The notes beneath the pieces are model-generated. The model was given only the letters and a program-made list of their open reading frames with translations, made no database searches and was not told the origin of the DNA. From Chloroflexota bacterium (GTDB lineage Bacteria; Chloroflexota; UBA6077; JACCZL01): a stretch of DNA of 60,247 nt. Every line of letters starts with the position of its first letter. Within the stretch, counting starts at the first letter, position 1. The DNA is taken from the NCBI GenBank assembly GCA_020850535.1, contig JADZEM010000043.1:1-60247 (forward strand). Reading direction: 5' to 3'. The translations under genes and the position numbers were made by a program. Below are positions 13,758 through 21,584 of the stretch, piece after piece.

Positions 13758-14516
13758 TCAGGCCCGGGTGGGGAAGAGGCGCGCCAGCAGCAGCCCGGCC
13801 TCGTAGAAGAGGTAGAGCGGCGCGGCGACTACCAGCATCGTCAGGATGTCAGGCGTCGGCGTAGCCAGCGCCGCCAGAATGACGGCGACCAGCAAGGCGT
13901 ACGGGCGCAGCTTCGTGAGTCGTTCCATCCCGACCACCTCCATGCCCCCGAGTGTGCGTACCCAGAATGGCAGTTGAACTGCTACCCCACTAAGACATAC
14001 CAGGTGGAGGCCAAGGATCCCGAGACTGGTCATCGACATGCGGTATCGCCAGTGATTCAGGTCATGGTTCCAACTCACATGCGCAGCGAGAATGGGAACC
14101 ACGATGATGAAGGCGAAGGCCGCTCCGAAGACGAAGGCGACAGTTAGGCCTATTGCCGTACCCCATCGACGGAACCGGCCCCTCGCATTCCCGAGTGCGA
14201 TGACGAGTCCCAGGATCTGCGCGATAAGGACTGGCTGTGCCATGGCCAGCGCGGAGACAGCGGCGACGTACACGTACGCCCGTAGCCATTCTTCTTGAGA
14301 ATCGTGTGAGATGACAAACCAGACCGTAGAGAGCACCTGAAGGAGATCGCCTGCAAGCGAGTGTTGGTCCCACCCGCGTGGAATCGGCCAGCATACCAGG
14401 ACGAACGCCACCAGGTAGCTGCCCAGGCAGATGAGGACGCGTCGGAGTGCATCCCGCGTTAGCTCGTTCATCGACGTGACGTCTTCGGGCGGATCAATGA
14501 CGGGCCTGCTCATCAA
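13758..14516 (-). CDS. TatC-like polytopic membrane protein (degenerate paralogue, six predicted TM)
   Basis: A 252-residue membrane protein with hydrophobic spans at about 25-45, 81-107, 119-143, 164-186, 205-220 and 224-246, the TatC pattern. The C-terminal RPYALLVAVILAALATPTPD then YLFYEAGLLLARLF matches the TatC signature (compare YALILSFIVGAMITPTPD in the canonical TatC at 20259). The N-terminal HLEELR twin-arginine recognition motif of TatC is missing; the protein begins MNELTRDALRRV there. The upstream gene overlaps by four bases and encodes a shorter relative. Function as a translocase is doubtful; it could be a divergent partner or a decaying duplicate. Confidence 0.65.
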   Translation of the reverse strand: MMSRPVIDPPEDVTSMNELTRDALRRVLICLGSYLVAFVLVCWPIPRGWDQHSLAGDLLQVLSTVWFVISHDSQEEWLRAYVYVAAVSALAMAQPVLIAQILGLVIALGNARGRFRRWGTAIGLTVAFVFGAAFAFIIVVPILAAHVSWNHDLNHWRYRMSMTSLGILGLHLVCLSGVAVQLPFWVRTLGGMEVVGMERLTKLRPYALLVAVILAALATPTPDILTMLVVAAPLYLFYEAGLLLARLFPTRA

Positions 14517-15139
14517 CTGCTTTGACCTACGGCCCCGACGCTGCCAGCCGGAATGAGTCTTGCCAGCAGCAGCCCGGCCTCGTAGAAGAGGTAGAGCGGC
14601 ACGGCTACGAGCATCATCGACAGCGGATCAGTGCTCGGCGTCACCAGCGCCGCGACGATCACCGTCCCCAGCAGCAGGTATCGTCGTGACCGCTCCAACG
14701 TTCGTCTACTCGTGATCTCCAGACGTACAAGCACGGCCGGCCAGCCCGGCAACTGGAACGCCAGCCCGACCAGGAAGGTCAATCCGGCAACGAAGAGGAC
14801 TTCATCGGCGGTGTTGATGCCCGCCATGATGAAGTGGGCGATGGGACTGACGCCGGACCGTACCCAGAGCAGATGCGGGGATGATGGAACGGACAGTGCG
14901 ATGGCGATAGACTGCGTAGTAGAGCCGTCGGTGACGTACGGCACGGGCAGCAAGGCCACCAGAAGACCAGCGAACAGCGCGGCCGCACAGATGGCAATCC
15001 GCCAGCGGACCCGTCGATCCGATGTGGGCTCATCCCGGGCGGCGTACAGGTCCGCGCACGTCAACTTGTCCACAAGTGGCCTCGTAGCAGAGATCGCCGG
15101 CGGCCCGAGCGCGCACCGCACAGGGGCAGCGGTTCCCAA
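14513..15139 (-). CDS. Short TatC-like membrane protein
   Basis: A 208-residue protein related to the next gene and to TatC. Its first span and loop (ALLPVPYVTDGSTTQSIAI) align with ALPIPWLTEASVTQTVISI of the canonical TatC. Its end (LERSRRYLLLGTVIVAAL, VTPSTDPLSMML, YLFYEAGLLLARL) aligns with the last two spans. One to two central membrane spans are missing, leaving about four. The last ~43 coding bases are nearly identical to those of the neighbour (around 14561-14604 versus 13783-13826), so the pair arose by tandem duplication. It overlaps the downstream TatC-like gene as ATGA. The N-terminal 40 residues are unconserved-looking and the start is uncertain. Confidence 0.6.
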   Translation of the reverse strand: MGTAAPVRCALGPPAISATRPLVDKLTCADLYAARDEPTSDRRVRWRIAICAAALFAGLLVALLPVPYVTDGSTTQSIAIALSVPSSPHLLWVRSGVSPIAHFIMAGINTADEVLFVAGLTFLVGLAFQLPGWPAVLVRLEITSRRTLERSRRYLLLGTVIVAALVTPSTDPLSMMLVAVPLYLFYEAGLLLARLIPAGSVGAVGQSS

Positions 15140-15150
15140 TACCGCCCAGT

Positions 15151-15510
15151 TTACGGCACGCGGACCACAATCGCGGCGTTGACCATCAGGATCGCGTCGA
15201 TGCGGTCCCCAAACTCCGGCCGGAACGCCTCGCCGACCGGCAGCAGGCCGCCCGGCTGCACCATTACGTTGACCGTCCCAATCGGGAACTGGGCCTTGAC
15301 CTGCTCCACATCCACCGGGCCGGTCTCCGGCGGCGCGCCGATGGTCACATCCACCATCACCGTGGACATATCCGTCACACCAGCCACCTGCCGCAACCCC
15401 GGCAACGAGACATGCTGAAACGCATTCCGAACGGCCCGCACAGCGGCCTTCGTCGGATCCTGCCCGTGCAGGTCAACCCCAGTCCCCAGCTCGACGCAGA
15501 ACGTACGCAT
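15151..15510 (-). CDS. Lin0512 family protein
   Basis: A 119-residue protein that I recognise as the Lin0512 family by its opening MRTFCVELGTGVDLHGQDPT, the following KAAVRAVRNAF, and the end VNAAIVVRVP. The family is conserved in many bacteria and has no firmly established function. The ATG at 15510 has GGAGAG a few bases upstream; an alternative GTG at 15522 adds four residues. It is the first gene on the minus strand, 11 bases upstream of the TatC-like pair, and so may be co-transcribed with it. Confidence 0.75.
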   Translation of the reverse strand: MRTFCVELGTGVDLHGQDPTKAAVRAVRNAFQHVSLPGLRQVAGVTDMSTVMVDVTIGAPPETGPVDVEQVKAQFPIGTVNVMVQPGGLLPVGEAFRPEFGDRIDAILMVNAAIVVRVP

Positions 15511-15561
15511 GACTCTCTCCACACCGCTCTCATCGGTCGTTCCTCAGTGTAGCCGTGATCT

Positions 15562-15687
15562 GTCGGGGGCTGAAGCCCCCGGCTACAGTCATTCAGTCGC
15601 TCCGCGACGTTGGGCGGGGTGGCCGTCGAGCACGGGAGGCGTCGCGCAGCGACAGCACGACGGTAGGCGGGGGTTTCAACCCCCGAC
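15562..15687. repeat. Palindromic repeat element, copy 2
   Basis: Same architecture as the copy at the window start. GTCGGGGGCTGAAGCCCCC opens at 15562 and the mirrored TTTCAACCCCCGAC ends at 15687. The inner palindrome is CAGTCGCTCCGCGAC against GTCGCGCAGCGAC. The extended terminal repeats seen at 2-18 and 60073-60097 are absent here, so this is the core form. It lies in the divergent spacer between the Lin0512 gene and the DUF177 gene; the remaining part (15688-15902) holds the promoter and hairpin listed separately. Confidence 0.8.
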
Positions 15688-15902: not shown

Positions 15903-16457
15903 ATGATCGGGGAGAATGTCGCGCAACTGCTGCAAGCTCCCGTCGGCACGAGTCGCTCGTATCGCCTGGACGAGGACGAGCCGCTTCTGGCCGAGGAACT
16001 CGGGCTCGTCAGCCCGATTGTCGGCACGCTGAAGCTCACCCGCACCAACCACGGGATTCTGGCTGAGGCCCGCTACTCCGTCGACATCGAGCAGGAGTGC
16101 GGCCGGTGTCTGGAGCCAGCCCGTGACACGATCCAGAGCGAGTTGAGCGAGGAGTTCCTGCCCTGCCTCAACATCGTCACCGGCACGCCGGTCAACATCG
16201 AGGCCGATCCCGAGGCGCCGCGCCTGACCGCCAACCACGAGCTTGACCTGACCGAAAGCCTCCGCCAGGACATCGTGGTGCAGACACCGCTCCAGCCACT
16301 CTGCCGCCCGGACTGCCCCGGCCTCTGCCCACAGTGCGGGGCGGAGCTTAGCGCAGGCGCGTGCGCCTGCGACGGGGACGACGCGCCCCTCTCGGACAAC
16401 CCACAACTGAGCCGCCTGGGTGAGTTGCTCAAAGCGCAGCTTCCCCCAGGCTCATAG
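15903..16457 (+). CDS. DUF177 (YceD-like) protein with zinc-binding tail
   Basis: A 184-residue YceD/DUF177 protein, which in most bacteria sits directly before the ribosomal protein L32 gene, as here. The signature EQECGRCLEP lies near residues 62-71 and a zinc-ribbon-like C-PDCPGLCPQCG-C cluster is near 137-150. E. coli YceD is linked to 23S rRNA metabolism; the bacterial family is otherwise little understood. Start ATG 15903 follows GAGGTGCCGAG. It leads the operon with rpmF 71 bases downstream. Confidence 0.88.
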   Translation: MIGENVAQLLQAPVGTSRSYRLDEDEPLLAEELGLVSPIVGTLKLTRTNHGILAEARYSVDIEQECGRCLEPARDTIQSELSEEFLPCLNIVTGTPVNIEADPEAPRLTANHELDLTESLRQDIVVQTPLQPLCRPDCPGLCPQCGAELSAGACACDGDDAPLSDNPQLSRLGELLKAQLPPGS

Positions 16458-16528
16458 CTTCCGTCGCGTAGACGGTATCATTCGCACCCGAACACTCATC
16501 GACCCCTGCACACCGAAGGAGCACGCTC

Positions 16529-16729
16529 ATGGGCGCCCTGCCAAAGAAGAAGGTCAGCCGCATGCATCGCGGCCATCGCCGCCACCACCTCGCCATCACC
16601 CTGCCCACGCTGATGGACTGCCCGCAGTGCAATCAGAAGAAGCTGACGCACGTCGTCTGCCCGTCCTGCGGCACCTACAACGGCCACCAGGTGCTGACCA
16701 TCAAGGAGAAGCGGCTCCAGGCCGAGTAG
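16529..16729 (+). CDS. rpmF: 50S ribosomal protein L32
   Basis: A 66-residue L32: it opens with the invariant MGALPKKKVS and holds two CxxC pairs (CPQC and CPSC) for zinc, so it is the zinc-containing form. AAGGAG precedes the ATG. It lies between DUF177 and fabG, the common bacterial arrangement linking translation to fatty-acid synthesis, although plsX and fabD, which often sit here, are not present. Confidence 0.96.
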   Translation: MGALPKKKVSRMHRGHRRHHLAITLPTLMDCPQCNQKKLTHVVCPSCGTYNGHQVLTIKEKRLQAE

Positions 16730-16890
16730 GGGTCCAGGCCGAGCAGGCACGCCAGGCCGATACGCGGTCAGCGGCCTGAGACAGGCTGCACGCCTTGTCC
16801 CATGAGCGCGATGCCGGGCCACGCTGGCCCGGACTGCTGCATGGGCGAGAACACCAGGCAGCCAGCAGGGCACGGGAGGGGTAGCGCGCC

Positions 16891-17706
16891 ATGTCCACCA
16901 ACGGCGACCAGTTTCTGGATTCGATCATGCCGAAGCCGGCGCCGGCTCCACGCCTTCTGACCAGCTTGCACGGCAAGGTTGCGCTGGTCACTGGCGGCTC
17001 GCGGGGCATCGGCCGGGCCGTGGCGATCCGTCTGGCGCAGGCCGGCGCGAAGGTCTCCTTCAACTACAAGAGCAACCACGAGGCCGCGCAGGACGTCCTG
17101 GGCGAGCTGAAGGGCGGCGGCGCGCACGCGATGGCCGTGGCCGGCGACGTCGGCGTGCAGGCCGACGTAGACCGACTGGTCTCCTCGACGCTCCAGGCGT
17201 TCGGGCAGATCGACATCCTGGTCAACAACGCCGGCATCACGCGGGACACCCTCCTGATGCGGATGTCCGAAGAGGACTGGGACGCCGTCATCGACACCAA
17301 CCTCAAGAGCACGTTCCTGGTGACCAAGGCCGTGCTGCGGGGGATGGTGCGCCAGCGGTCCGGCCGGATCGTCAATATCACGTCGGTGTCGGGGCTGCTC
17401 GGGAACGCCGGCCAGTCCAACTACGCCGCCTCCAAGGCCGGCATGATCGGCTTCACGCGGTCGGTCGCCCGCGAGGTCGCCTCGCGCGGCATCACCGTCA
17501 ACGCGGTGGCCCCCGGCTTCATCGAGACGGACATCTGGACCGGCGTCAGCGAGGAGGCCCGCAAGGCGATCCTCAACATGGCGCCGCTCGGCTACATCGG
17601 GAAGCCAGAGGACGTAGCCGAGGCCGTCGCGTTCCTGGCATCGGACGCCGCCCGCTACATCACCGGCCAGACGCTGAACGTCGACGGCGGCCTGGTGATG
17701 AGCTAG
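16891..17706 (+). CDS. fabG: 3-oxoacyl-ACP reductase FabG
   Basis: A 271-residue short-chain dehydrogenase. The NAD(P) site is TGGSRGIGRAVA, the NNAG motif is present (DILVNNAGITRDT), and the catalytic Ser-Tyr-Lys lie in NITSVSGLLGN and SNYAASKAGM. The C-terminus GQTLNVDGGLVMS is typical of FabG. Placement between rpmF and accC, with acpP three genes on, supports the fatty-acid role over a catabolic SDR. About 30 residues precede the Rossmann fold. The start ATG follows GGGAGGGG. Confidence 0.9.
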   Translation: MSTNGDQFLDSIMPKPAPAPRLLTSLHGKVALVTGGSRGIGRAVAIRLAQAGAKVSFNYKSNHEAAQDVLGELKGGGAHAMAVAGDVGVQADVDRLVSSTLQAFGQIDILVNNAGITRDTLLMRMSEEDWDAVIDTNLKSTFLVTKAVLRGMVRQRSGRIVNITSVSGLLGNAGQSNYAASKAGMIGFTRSVAREVASRGITVNAVAPGFIETDIWTGVSEEARKAILNMAPLGYIGKPEDVAEAVAFLASDAARYITGQTLNVDGGLVMS

Positions 17707-17731
17707 GCCCCGCGGCCACTCACCAGCCAGC

Positions 17732-19120
17732 ATGTTCAGCAAGATCCTCGTCGCCAACCGAGGCGAGATCGCCGTCCGGATCATCCGCGCCTGCCGCGAG
17801 CTTGGTGTCCAGGTCGTCGTCGCCCACTCCGAGGCCGACCGTGAGTCGCTGGCCGTCCGGCTGGCCGACGAATCGGTCTGTGTCGGCCCTGCCGCCAGCG
17901 ACCGCAGCTACCTGAACATCCCGAACATCGTCTCGGCGGCCCTGGTGACCGGCTGCGACGCCGTCCACCCCGGCTACGGCTTCCTCTCGGAGAACGCCTA
18001 CCTTGCCGAGGTCGTGGAGCAGTGCGGGCTGACCTTCATCGGGCCGCCGCCCGGCGTCATCGAGCTGCTGGGCGACAAGATCCAGGCCCGCAAGCAGATG
18101 GCCCTGGCCGGCGTCCCGACGGTCCCCGGCTCGGACGATCCGCTCTACCGCGTGGACGACGCGATCGACCTGGCACGGCAGATCGGCTACCCGCTGATGA
18201 TCAAGGCCGTGGCCGGCGGCGGCGGTCGCGGCATCCGCGCTGTCGTGGACGAGCGCGACCTGATGCGCCAGTTTCCGCTGGCCCAGATGGAGGCGCAGAG
18301 CTTCTTCGGCAACGGCGCGCTCTACCTGGAGCGGAAGGTCGAGCGGGCGCACCACGTCGAGGTGCAGCTCCTGGCCGACAACCACGGCACGACGCTGGCC
18401 CTCGGCGAGCGCGACTGCACCCTCCAGCGCCGCCGGCAAAAGCTGCTGGAGGAGGCCCCCTCCCCGAGCCTCACCGCCGAGCAGCGCGAGCGGATCTGCG
18501 CGCAGGCCGCCCGGGGCGCGGCGCACGTCGGCTACCGCAACGCCGGCACCATGGAGTTCCTGCTCGACGAGTCCGGTCAGTTCTACTTCATGGAAGTGAA
18601 CACCCGGATCCAGGTCGAGCACGGCGTGACCGAGCTGGTGACCGGCATCGATCTGGTCAAGGAGCAGTTGCGCGTCGCGGCCGGCGAGGCGCTCGGATAC
18701 ACCCAGGCGGATGTCCAGGTGCGCGGCCACGCCGTCGAGTGCCGCGTGACCTCCGAAGACCCGATGCGTGGCTTCGCGCCCGAGTCTGGGGTCATCGAGA
18801 CCTGGCTGCCGCCGGGCGGCCCTGGCGTCCGCGTGGACTCCCACTGCTACGCGGGCTACTTTACGCCGCCGTTCTACGACTCGCTGCTGGCGAAGGTGAT
18901 GACCTGGGGCCAGAGCCGCGACGAGGCGTTTGACCGGATGGCGCGCGCCTTGCGGGAAATGCGCGTCGAGGGCATCCACACCTCGATCCCCTACCATCTG
19001 AGCCTGCTCGCCGACCGGTCGGTCCGCTCCAACGCCGTGACCATCGACTTCGTCGGCGACCATCTCGCGTCCTGGGCCACGCGCCAGGAAGATCGCCCCA
19101 TCGAGCGGCCCACGGCGTGA
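17732..19120 (+). CDS. accC: Biotin carboxylase subunit of acetyl-CoA carboxylase
   Basis: A 462-residue ATP-grasp carboxylase that charges biotin with bicarbonate. It begins [17 protein letters not shown], has the glycine loop GGGGRGI, and the catalytic region [16 protein letters not shown] (the family usually reads HPVTE). Length fits a free AccC rather than a fused acyl-CoA carboxylase; no biotin carrier gene is next to it. It starts 25 bases after fabG and overlaps nusB by four bases. Confidence 0.94.
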
Positions 19121-19908
19121 CGCCGCCGCTCGACCCGCACGACAGGACCCCCATGCCCGACGACCGCAGCCCCGAGTCCGCCGACCAGCCGCCCGCCTCT
19201 GCGCCGACGCCTGCCGAGCCCAGCACGGCCCCGGCCGAGGCCAGCGCGGCCCCTGCCGAGGCAGCGGACGCCGAGGCCAGTGCGGCCCCTGACGAGGCAG
19301 CGGGCGCTGCGCCGGATGCCGAGGCGTCCGCCGGCGCGGCGCCCGCGGATGCCGACGGGCGGGTGGTCAGCATCCCCGGGCGCGGTCAGGTCAACCTGCG
19401 CCTGGGTGTGCCGGCCGAGCGCGGCGGCGACCGCCCGGCCTCCGGCTGGAGCGGCCGGCGGCTGGCCCGCATCCTGGCGTTCCAGGTGCTCTACGAGGTC
19501 GATCTGGCCCGCCATGCGCCAGGGGCCGTGCTGACGCGGTTCCTCGACGCCCCCGAGCACACGGTCGACATCGAGGACGCCGAGACGGTCCACGGTCCGC
19601 TGCCCGAGGACGTGACGGCCTACGCCCGCGAGCTGATCGGCGGCGTCCTCCGCCAGCGCGAGGCGCTCGACCAGGAGCTTCAGGAGCGCGCGCCCGCCTG
19701 GCCGCTGCGCCAGATGTCCGCCGTGGACCGCAGCATCCTCAGACTCGGACTGTACGAGTGCCGCTACCAGCATGGTATCGTTCCAGTCAAAGTGGCAATC
19801 AACGAGGCGATTGAGCTGGCGAAGCTCTTCGGGAATGACGGATTGCCCCGACTGGTCAACGGCGTGCTCGGGAGCGCTATCGCCTCCGAGAGCAGGCAAA
19901 CCCCCTGA
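19117..19908 (+). CDS. nusB: Transcription antitermination protein NusB with long N-terminal extension
   Basis: The NusB all-helical RNA-binding domain begins near residue 107 ([21 protein letters not shown]) and ends GVLGSAIA. The hallmark [15 protein letters not shown] and [16 protein letters not shown] are present. It binds boxA RNA with ribosomal protein S10 in rRNA antitermination. The first ~105 residues are Ala/Pro/Glu-rich with near-repeats of AEASAAP and are probably disordered; usual NusB proteins are 130-170 residues. The GTG at 19117 overlaps the accC stop; ATG 19153 is an alternative start. Confidence 0.9.
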
Positions 19909-19975
19909 TCGCGTACACTCCCGCCGCCAAAGGCATCAAATCCTTGACCTATCCACTTGAGGAGGGGCACAACGC

Positions 19976-20215
19976 ATGGCACAGACTCCCGAGGCTCGCC
20001 TGAAGAAGATCATCGCCGACCAGTTGAGCGTCAACGAAGAGGACGTCGTTCCTGAGGCCTCCTTTATCGACGACCTGAACGCCGACTCGCTGGATCTGGT
20101 CGAGTTGATCATGTCGCTCGAGGAAGAGTTCGGGGTGAAGATCTCGGACGAGGACGCTGCGAAGATCCTGACCGTTCAGGACGCGATGGATTACATGCAA
20201 GAGCACGCGAACTAA
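19976..20215 (+). CDS. acpP: Acyl carrier protein
   Basis: A 79-residue acyl carrier protein. The phosphopantetheine attachment Ser is in [14 protein letters not shown], followed by [14 protein letters not shown] strong GAGGAGGGG lies upstream of the ATG. It is 67 bases after nusB and 43 before tatC, and serves the fatty-acid synthase with the FabG and AccC encoded just upstream. Confidence 0.96.
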
Positions 20216-20258
20216 CCTCGGTCAGGCAGATGCATCGTCTGGTTGACCTGGACTCACC

Positions 20259-21227
20259 GTGAGCATTCCGACAGAAGACCCACGAGCCGCGACCGGCGCG
20301 ACGCCTGCCACCAATGGCACGGCGTCTCATGCGACGGATGGCGTCGGCGAGACGGCCATCAGCGCGACGGTCCAGTCAACCTCCTCGACAACGGAAGCGT
20401 CGGTCGCGCCGGTTCCCTACGAGCCGGCGCTGCCTCCTGCTTCGCCCCCGCCCCCCGACACGACGTCGGCCCTCGAACCGCTCGGCGATGCGCCCGAGGA
20501 GGAAGAAGAGGGCATGACGATGCTGGAGCACCTCGAGGAGCTCCGCAACCGGCTCGTCGTCTGCTCGGTGGCGCTGGCCGTCGGCCTGGTGATCTCGGCC
20601 CTGCCGATCCCCTGGCTCACGGAAGCTTCAGTCACGCAGACGGTCATCAGCATCGTCAGCCAGCCCGCCGCCGGCCACCTGATCTTCTTCAAGCCCGGCG
20701 AAGGGTTTGTCACCTACTTCCAGGTGGCGCTGATCGTTGCCGCCGTGCTGGCGCTTCCCGTCATCACCTATCAGGTGATCGCGTTCGTCCTGCCGGCCCT
20801 CTTACCCCACGAGAAGAAGTATCTCTACATGGCGATCCCGGGGGTGATGGCCTCGTTTGCCATCGGCCTGTTCTTCGGGTACATCCTGGTGATCCCGGTG
20901 GCCATTCAGTTCTTACTCACCTTCGGCACCGAGAACATTCCGGGCCTGGAGGTGAAGTGGGCGTTCAGCGAGTACATCGGCACCGTCACGACGCTGCTCT
21001 TCTGGATGGGCCTGTCGTTTGAGACGCCGCTGCTGATGTTCTTCCTGACCAAGCTGCGGGTCTTGAACCCGGATCGGCTCAAGAGCTTCCGGAAGTACGC
21101 GCTGATCCTGTCGTTCATCGTCGGCGCGATGATTACGCCCACGCCGGACCCGCTGAACCAGACGCTGGTCAGCCTGCCGCTGTACCTGCTGTTCGAGCTG
21201 GGGCTGCTGCTCTCGAAGCTGGCGTAG
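20259..21227 (+). CDS. tatC: Sec-independent protein translocase TatC, with N-terminal extension
   Basis: The TatC core begins at about residue 86 (MTMLEHLEELRNRL, holding the twin-arginine recognition Glu residues) and has six membrane spans, ending YALILSFIVGAMITPTPD and LYLLFELGLLLSKLA. The preceding 85 residues are Thr/Ala/Pro-rich and acidic. Their GC-rich third codon positions suggest real coding from GTG 20259, but ATG 20514 has GAGGAGGAAG upstream and would give a normal 237-residue TatC. No tatA is adjacent. At least one Tat-signal protein is in the window (32016). Two degenerate TatC-like proteins lie at 13758-15139. Confidence 0.95.
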   Translation: MSIPTEDPRAATGATPATNGTASHATDGVGETAISATVQSTSSTTEASVAPVPYEPALPPASPPPPDTTSALEPLGDAPEEEEEGMTMLEHLEELRNRLVVCSVALAVGLVISALPIPWLTEASVTQTVISIVSQPAAGHLIFFKPGEGFVTYFQVALIVAAVLALPVITYQVIAFVLPALLPHEKKYLYMAIPGVMASFAIGLFFGYILVIPVAIQFLLTFGTENIPGLEVKWAFSEYIGTVTTLLFWMGLSFETPLLMFFLTKLRVLNPDRLKSFRKYALILSFIVGAMITPTPDPLNQTLVSLPLYLLFELGLLLSKLA

Positions 21228-21236
21228 CCTCCTACG

Positions 21237-21382
21237 TTACGGGGCGGGGCGGATCGCCGTGAACACGTCCACGTCGCCGCCCCCCGATCTCAGCTCCGGC
21301 AGCGTGTCGAGCGGGCCGCCAGCAGGTGATACCAGCCGGCCAGGTCGGTGTAGAGCAACGGCAGCGAAGAAGTCACGTTGGA
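21237..21382 (-). pseudogene. Remnant of a class I SAM methyltransferase gene
   Basis: Reading the minus strand, one frame gives LPLLYTDLAGWYHLL, which is the common opening of small class I methyltransferases. Another frame gives LDTLPELRSGGGDVDVFTAI followed by RPAP and a stop, which resembles the end of the same family. The catalytic middle is gone and the frames do not join, so this looks like the two ends of a gene fused by a deletion of several hundred bases. It abuts the perfect inverted repeat at 21383. Confidence 0.45.
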
Positions 21383-21495
21383 GGCCCTCACCCCCCGGCC
21401 CCCTCTCCCTGTGCGCGGGAGAGGGGGAGACGCACGAGAGTTTCGTTCCTCCCCCTCTCCCGCGCACAGGGAGAGGGGGCCGGGGGGTGAGGGCC
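21383..21495. repeat. Perfect 47-bp inverted repeat
   Basis: Arms at 21383-21429 and 21449-21495 are exact reverse complements, separated by 19 bases. Each arm itself contains the CCTCACCCCCCGGCC and CTCTCCC wording found in other spacers and in the mutS insert. The hairpin lies between tatC (stop 21227) and the convergent Ldh2 gene (stop 21585), and may end transcription from both sides. The rest of the spacer (21496-21584) holds a partial extra copy of one arm and no gene. Confidence 0.85.
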
Positions 21496-21584
21496 TTCCG
21501 GGGGGGTGAGGGCCTCCCTCGAGACCCGAGATGAGGGCCTTCGCCCCGGTCACTCGTCAAGCGCCAGAACCCCCGGGACGCAGT

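What the first reader, a model, noticed from the sequence alone, without database searches (positions are those of the whole stretch)
13758..15139. Tandem pair of degenerate TatC-like proteins distinct from the true TatC
Two overlapping genes encode proteins with the TatC C-terminal signature (YLFYEAGLLLARL after a TP-TPD loop) but neither has the HLEELR twin-arginine recognition motif. One retains six predicted spans; the other lost central spans and has about four. They share almost identical 3' ends (about 43 bases, one difference), showing a tandem duplication followed by strong divergence elsewhere. Both frames are intact, so they are probably maintained. A complete canonical TatC is encoded 5 kb away. 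A TatC-derived membrane module without signal-peptide recognition has, to my knowledge, no described role.
Basis: partly seen in the sequence, partly recalled or inferred. Interest (0 to 1): 0.7.

Follow-up and report, generated by a model that had tools for sequence, protein, structure and literature searches.

The report
Twin substrate-blind TatC paralogues
Next to clpX, where its relatives keep their only tatC gene, this Chloroflexota-type bacterium carries two overlapping, fast-diverged copies of tatC that keep the part of the exporter that docks partner subunits but have lost most or all of the site that recognises cargo; they look maintained, but they are known from one genome only and their job is untested.

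Summary
Gene A (13758-14513, minus, 251 aa) and gene B (14513-15073, minus, 186 aa) both match TatC (79 and 61 bits, cut-off 25), overlap as TGATG, and lack HLEELR; a canonical TatC (194 bits) lies at 20259-21227. A models as a six-helix TatC fold (Z 19.4 to solved TatC). B lacks TM2-TM3. New here: in 10 genomes of the order the only tatC sits convergent with clpX, exactly where A/B sit. In the window the block duf177...acpP-tatC is inverted, so A/B are copies left at the ancestral site. The N-terminal half of B is closest to its own genome's canonical TatC. Twin-arginine-binding residues F94 and E103 (E. coli numbering) are L and G in A and deleted in B; the TM5-TM6 docking half persists. A and B diverged from each other under purifying selection in that half (ps 0.69, pn 0.39) and stay open; but both have the poorest codon adaptation of 18 neighbouring genes, and no orthologue was found in 301 genomes of the phylum. 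Best reading: substrate-blind TatC paralogues acting as accessory or regulatory Tat subunits; main rival: late-stage decline of redundant duplicates. Function has not been shown.

The parts
13758..14513 (-). Gene A: 251-aa TatC paralogue with six spans; HLEELR lost, F94 replaced by L, E103 by G
14513..15073 (-). Gene B: 186-aa TatC paralogue with TM1 and TM4-TM6; TM2-TM3 deleted (longer alternative start at 15139)
14511..14515 (-). TGATG overlap of the stop of B with the start of A (probable translational coupling)
   Evidence: coupling is inference
15151..15522 (-). Lin0512-family gene 77 bp upstream of B on the same strand; possible operon head
   Evidence: PF09585, 111.7 bits; present in 4 of 16 genomes of the order
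20259..21227 (+). Canonical TatC (194 bits, HLEELR present), moved with acpP by the inversion
15903..21227 (+). Block duf177-rpmF-fabG-accC-nusB-acpP-tatC, inverted relative to the relatives; its former tatC end faced clpX
   Evidence: order in L105, L106, L108
12332..13615 (+). clpX, the neighbour that marks the ancestral tatC site

Best explanation
A and B are duplicate tatC genes that stayed at the ancestral tatC site beside clpX when the working tatC was carried off in an inversion. Shown: ancestry, location, loss of most or all of the cargo-recognition site, retention of the TM4-TM6 half, and purifying selection between A and B in that half. Inferred: they are co-translated membrane proteins that enter the Tat receptor ring, docking TatA through TM5-TM6 and/or using the TM1 and TM5-6 faces next to canonical TatC, without binding signal peptides. 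They would therefore act as accessory or regulatory subunits (lowering the number of cargo sites per ring, tuning TatA recruitment, or acting as natural dominant-negative brakes) rather than as a second translocase.
For: Pfam and NCBIfam TatC matches. Ancestral site: the sole tatC is convergent with clpX in G001, G002, G003, G004, G006, G008, G009, G010, G012 and G013. The N-terminal half of B scores 52.8 bits to its own canonical TatC against 33.5 to the next best, and shares its periplasmic-loop length. Loss of F94/E103: L/G in A, deleted in B; E103 is invariant and F94 present in 53 of 54 reference TatCs. In E. coli E15, F94 and E103 hold the twin-arginine motif, and E103A or F94A/E103A do not bind substrate (PMC13323110; PMC5201420; PMC5102672). 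Ring contacts and TatA/TatB docking use TM5, the TM5-6 loop and TM1 (PMC13323110, PMC5201420, PMC10197872). These segments remain in both, with T208 and D211 kept. Purifying selection between A and B over 61 codons: ps 0.69, pn 0.39, reached in at most 0.5% of neutral simulations; A keeps hydropathy that none of 600 drift simulations reach. Other frames carry 2-13 stops. The model of A matches solved TatC at Z 19.4 over 216 residues.
Against: One genome only: no other genome among 301 of the phylum (29 of the class, 16 of the order) has the pair, and no close homologue appeared in genome contigs or viral contigs. Codon adaptation is the lowest of 18 genes (0.41 and 0.46) and GC3 is 0.73 and 0.77 against 0.83-0.95. 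Divergence of A and B from canonical TatC is near neutral (ps 0.57/pn 0.48 and 0.50/0.47). The polar-cluster Q215 is M and E170 is Q in both, although M215 is present in 24 of 54 TatCs and Q170 in 2. No TatA gene lies beside the pair and the three TatA paralogues are of ordinary types. Interaction with TatC or TatA could not be tested.
Confidence: 0.42

Rival explanations
1. Declining redundant duplicates: after the inversion the moved tatC took over, and A and B are relaxed copies still open but on the way out, with no present function.
For: Near-neutral ps/pn against canonical TatC, worst codon adaptation of the neighbourhood, loss of invariant residues, an internal deletion in B, and absence from all relatives.
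Against: A and B diverged from each other under purifying selection in TM4-TM6. Hydropathy and six spans of A are kept beyond drift. An intact frame at this divergence has P about 0.005-0.015 for A and 0.05-0.15 for B under drift. The TGATG junction is intact.
Confidence: 0.3
2. Neofunctionalisation outside Tat: a TatC-derived membrane scaffold co-opted for another process, perhaps with the adjacent Lin0512 protein.
For: Loss of the cargo site, altered polar-cluster residues, a same-strand Lin0512 gene 77 bp upstream, and new selective constraint after fast divergence.
Against: The residues kept are the TatC hallmarks TPxxD, the TM4 GxxxQxP and PLYLFYE. Lin0512 is not with such genes in the relative examined (G007), and no paper on it was found in the library searched.
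Confidence: 0.2
3. A second Tat pathway with a different signal recognised by A and B.
For: Extra TatC copies serve distinct substrates in Bacilli (PMC3827258).
Against: The acidic and aromatic twin-arginine pocket is lost or deleted and no dedicated TatA is found.
Confidence: 0.05
4. Assembly or binning artefact.
For: The genome is in 227 contigs with 4.6% estimated contamination, and palindromic repeats lie near both inversion breakpoints.
Against: Flanks are the family's own genes in family order; the N-terminal half of B is closest to this genome's TatC; no long repeat joins the breakpoints.
Confidence: 0.03

Closest known systems
Canonical bacterial TatC (PF00902, TIGR00945; structures 4b4a, 4hts, 9dzz, 9e01)
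   Same: Homologous; A has the six-helix fold; TM4-TM6 signature with TPxxD and PLYLFYE kept; ancestral locus
   Different: HLEELR, F94 and E103 absent; B lacks TM2-TM3; scores below the TatC equivalog cut-off (70.6 and 52.6 against 132.7 bits); E170 is Q and Q215 is M
Bacilli TatCd/TatCy and other multi-copy tatC genomes (PMC3827258)
   Same: Extra tatC copies by duplication or transfer; about 5% of species have two or more
   Different: Those described are second Tat systems; here both extra copies lack the recognition site and have no TatA partner gene beside them
E. coli TatC FEA (F94A/E103A) and E103A variants (PMC5201420, PMC13323110)
   Same: The same two positions are altered in A; those variants are blocked in substrate binding
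   Different: Laboratory mutants; A and B differ at many other sites and are natural genes
Dominant-negative TatC alleles with periplasmic-cap substitutions (PMC5102672)
   Same: Possible analogy for a defective TatC acting on the wild-type one
   Different: Those alleles still bind substrate; A and B changed both the cap and the recognition site

Membership tests
TatC family (PF00902) by homology | Profile match above the curated cut-off | tested here: met
   A 79.3 and B 60.9 bits against 25.1
TatC family (PF00902) by homology | Six-helix TatC fold, gene A | tested here: met
   Z 19.4, rmsd 3.1, 216 aligned to 4hts, next unrelated row Z 6.9; caveat: the input alignment contained TatCs
TatC family (PF00902) by homology | Six-helix TatC fold, gene B | tested here: not met
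   TM2-TM3 absent, four clear spans; model pTM 0.56, best Z 8.5 to TatC
Functional TatC translocase subunit (TIGR00945 equivalog) | Score over the equivalog cut-off 132.7 | tested here: not met
   A 70.6 and B 52.6; canonical copy 171.1
Functional TatC translocase subunit (TIGR00945 equivalog) | Twin-arginine site: HLEELR, F94, E103 | tested here: not met
   E103 is G in A and deleted in B; F94 is L or deleted; H12 lost in both. The E15 position may be D in A and R in B when anchored without gaps on TM1 (by eye)
Functional TatC translocase subunit (TIGR00945 equivalog) | TatA/TatB docking residues in TM5-TM6 (M205, T208, Q215) | tested here: inconclusive
   T208 kept; M205 is L; Q215 is M in both, as in 24 of 54 reference TatCs
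Functional TatC translocase subunit (TIGR00945 equivalog) | Supports export of twin-arginine proteins | not testable with these tools
   Needs complementation of a tatC deletion

The most novel reading that the evidence does not exclude
A natural pair of co-translated TatC paralogues that have shed the signal-peptide site and act inside the Tat receptor as cargo-blind subunits, making a mixed translocase whose number of cargo sites or TatA recruitment is tuned by non-recognising protomers.
Probability: 0.3. Interest if true: 0.75.

Novelty: new variant of a known kind. Interest (0 to 1): 0.45.

Why it matters
Recent structures show Tat receptors as rings of three identical TatC subunits (PMC13323110), and how many of them must bind cargo is, in my reading, an open mechanistic question. 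A genome that keeps cargo-blind TatC copies beside the normal one would offer a natural test of mixed rings, and shows which parts of TatC survive when cargo recognition is no longer selected: TM4, TM5, TM6 and the loop between the last two. If they are only dying duplicates, the case still documents an inversion that moved a core export gene and left its duplicates behind.

Tried and rejected
Orthologues in other genomes: none; other low TatC hits in the phylum are mostly short and may be contig-edge fragments. Conservation beside Lin0512: in G007 Lin0512 lies elsewhere with no TatC-like neighbour. A dedicated TatA for the pair: three TatA paralogues, all on other contigs; each type recurs in G001 or G002. 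Defence-system models: none. Placing A and B by tree: they group together (89/93) but on very long branches (3.5 and 2.0); the AU test is borderline for the family clade (p 0.046) and does not reject a clade with own TatC (p 0.11), so I relied on synteny and on the N-terminal half of B. Gene conversion at the 3' end: suggestive, not shown. Remnants of the pair in G001, G002, G006 and G008: none beyond their own tatC. dN/dS against canonical TatC is not decisive because the sequences are too diverged.

Full report
Observation. The two frames were read directly and translated. Gene A occupies 13758-14513 on the minus strand and gene B 14513-15073. The stop of B and the start of A overlap as TGATG, and B has a GAGG six bases before its GTG start. 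Both match Pfam TatC over the curated cut-off (79.3 and 60.9 bits against 25.1), and a whole-genome search finds only these two and the canonical gene at 20259-21227, which scores 194 bits. Both are below the NCBIfam TatC equivalog cut-off, which the canonical copy passes.

Anatomy. Aligned with 54 TatCs, both proteins keep the TM4-TM6 signature: the G-x-x-x-E/Q-x-P of TM4, R-x-Y, T-P-x-x-D, P-L-Y and E227. Both lose HLEELR. F94 is L and E103 is G in A; the stretch that holds them (TM2-TM3) is deleted in B. E103 is present in all 54 and F94 in 53. E170 is Q and Q215 is M in both; Q170 occurs in 2 and M215 in 24 of the 54. AlphaFold2 gives A six membrane helices (pLDDT 77, pTM 0.64), with TatC structures as the only strong matches (4hts Z 19.4, 4b4a Z 19.3; next unrelated 6.9). 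The alignment given to the predictor contained TatCs, so the fold match is expected but not forced. B is less certain (pLDDT 73, pTM 0.56); its best six Foldseek matches are all TatC but weak. Removing two helices keeps the inside-outside order, and positive charges lie where a cytoplasmic N-terminus predicts, if the weak extra hydrophobic stretch in each first periplasmic loop is not counted as a span.

Origin. In the order, 14 of 16 genomes have a tatC; all but the window's genome have exactly one. In ten of those it is convergent with clpX on the same contig, and acpP, nusB, accC, fabG, rpmF and duf177 follow where the contig and the fetched stretch allow. G002 reads clpX> <tatC <acpP <nusB <accC <fabG <rpmF <duf177 <ldh. 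The window reads clpX> <A <B <lin0512 duf177> rpmF> fabG> accC> nusB> acpP> tatC> <ldh. The block from duf177 to tatC is inverted, while A and B hold the position and orientation of the ancestral tatC. The simplest history is tandem duplication of tatC beside clpX, then an inversion carrying off one copy with its acpP neighbour and leaving the rest. The N-terminal half of B matches its own canonical TatC best (52.8 bits against 33.5 for G002) and shares its two-residue-longer first periplasmic loop, which points to an origin of at least that half in this lineage. The tree groups A with B (89/93) but their long branches prevent a firm placement.

Selection. Between A and B in 61 codons of TM4-TM6, ps is 0.69 and pn 0.39; neutral simulations reached so low a ratio in at most 0.5% of runs. 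Against canonical TatC the ratio is near neutral. A keeps mean hydropathy 0.77 and six hydrophobic segments by the simple count used; drift to the same divergence gave about 0.03-0.14 and at most five, in 600 runs. Drift would leave A without a stop in about 0.5-1.5% of runs at GC 0.62-0.69 and aa identity near 24-38%, up to 5% in the most favourable setting, and B in roughly 5-15%. The other five frames of A hold 4-13 stops and of B 2-10. Against this, codon adaptation (0.41, 0.46) is the lowest of 18 genes and GC3 the lowest. I read this as fast change after duplication, then constraint on the TM4-TM6 half, at low expression or in weak decline.

Mechanism. In E. coli the receptor is a trimer of TatBC in which each TatB helix lies between TM5 and the TM5-6 loop of one TatC and TM1 of the next, and the twin-arginine motif is held by E15, F94 and E103 (PMC13323110). 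TatA and TatB dock on TM5-TM6 (PMC5201420; PMC10197872). A and B keep TM1 and TM4-TM6 and lose the motif site: A mainly by substitution, B by excision. Two different routes to the same loss, with the same half kept, fit cargo-blind subunits that still enter the ring. This step is inference; no complex could be predicted here. The polar-cluster change Q215M and the absence of a dedicated TatA weaken it.

Breadth. Among 301 genomes of the phylum, A is the lowest-scoring near-full-length TatC match seen in the lists returned; other low hits are short and may be contig-edge fragments (one search lists only the best matches, so the multi-copy genomes were searched again). Searches of genome contigs and viral contigs gave only ordinary TatCs or nothing. 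The case rests on one genome. About 5% of bacterial species surveyed in 2013 had two or more tatC loci (PMC3827258); I found no description of TatC paralogues lacking the recognition site in the library searched, which is not proof of absence.

Verdict. Real, correctly seen, and better explained by locus history than by tandem duplication alone. Function unproven; cargo-blind accessory subunit is the leading reading at about 0.42, declining duplicate next at 0.30.

Noticed in passing
window 15903-21227: The block duf177-rpmF-fabG-accC-nusB-acpP-tatC is inverted between clpX and ldh relative to G002 and to the partial synteny of G001 and G008.
   Followed up: yes
window 15562-15687 and 21382-21496: Palindromic repeats lie near both inversion breakpoints: a dispersed element also found near both contig ends (38-190, 60122-60245), and a perfect 48-nt inverted repeat between tatC and ldh.
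   Followed up: partly
window 15151-15522: A Lin0512-family gene of unknown function sits at the breakpoint; only 4 of 16 genomes of the order have one (G007 copy 69% identical).
   Followed up: partly
window 20259-20520: The canonical TatC has an N-terminal extension of about 85 residues rich in Ala, Pro, Thr and Glu before HLEELR; G001 also has a long extension.
   Followed up: no
G077:C42:11823-12470: A second, otherwise full-scoring tatC in another genome of the phylum carries one in-frame TAA.
   Followed up: no
L113, L114, L115: The genome holds three TatA paralogues on contigs away from any TatC; all three keep a glutamate near the start of the helix, a TatB-like feature.
   Followed up: partly
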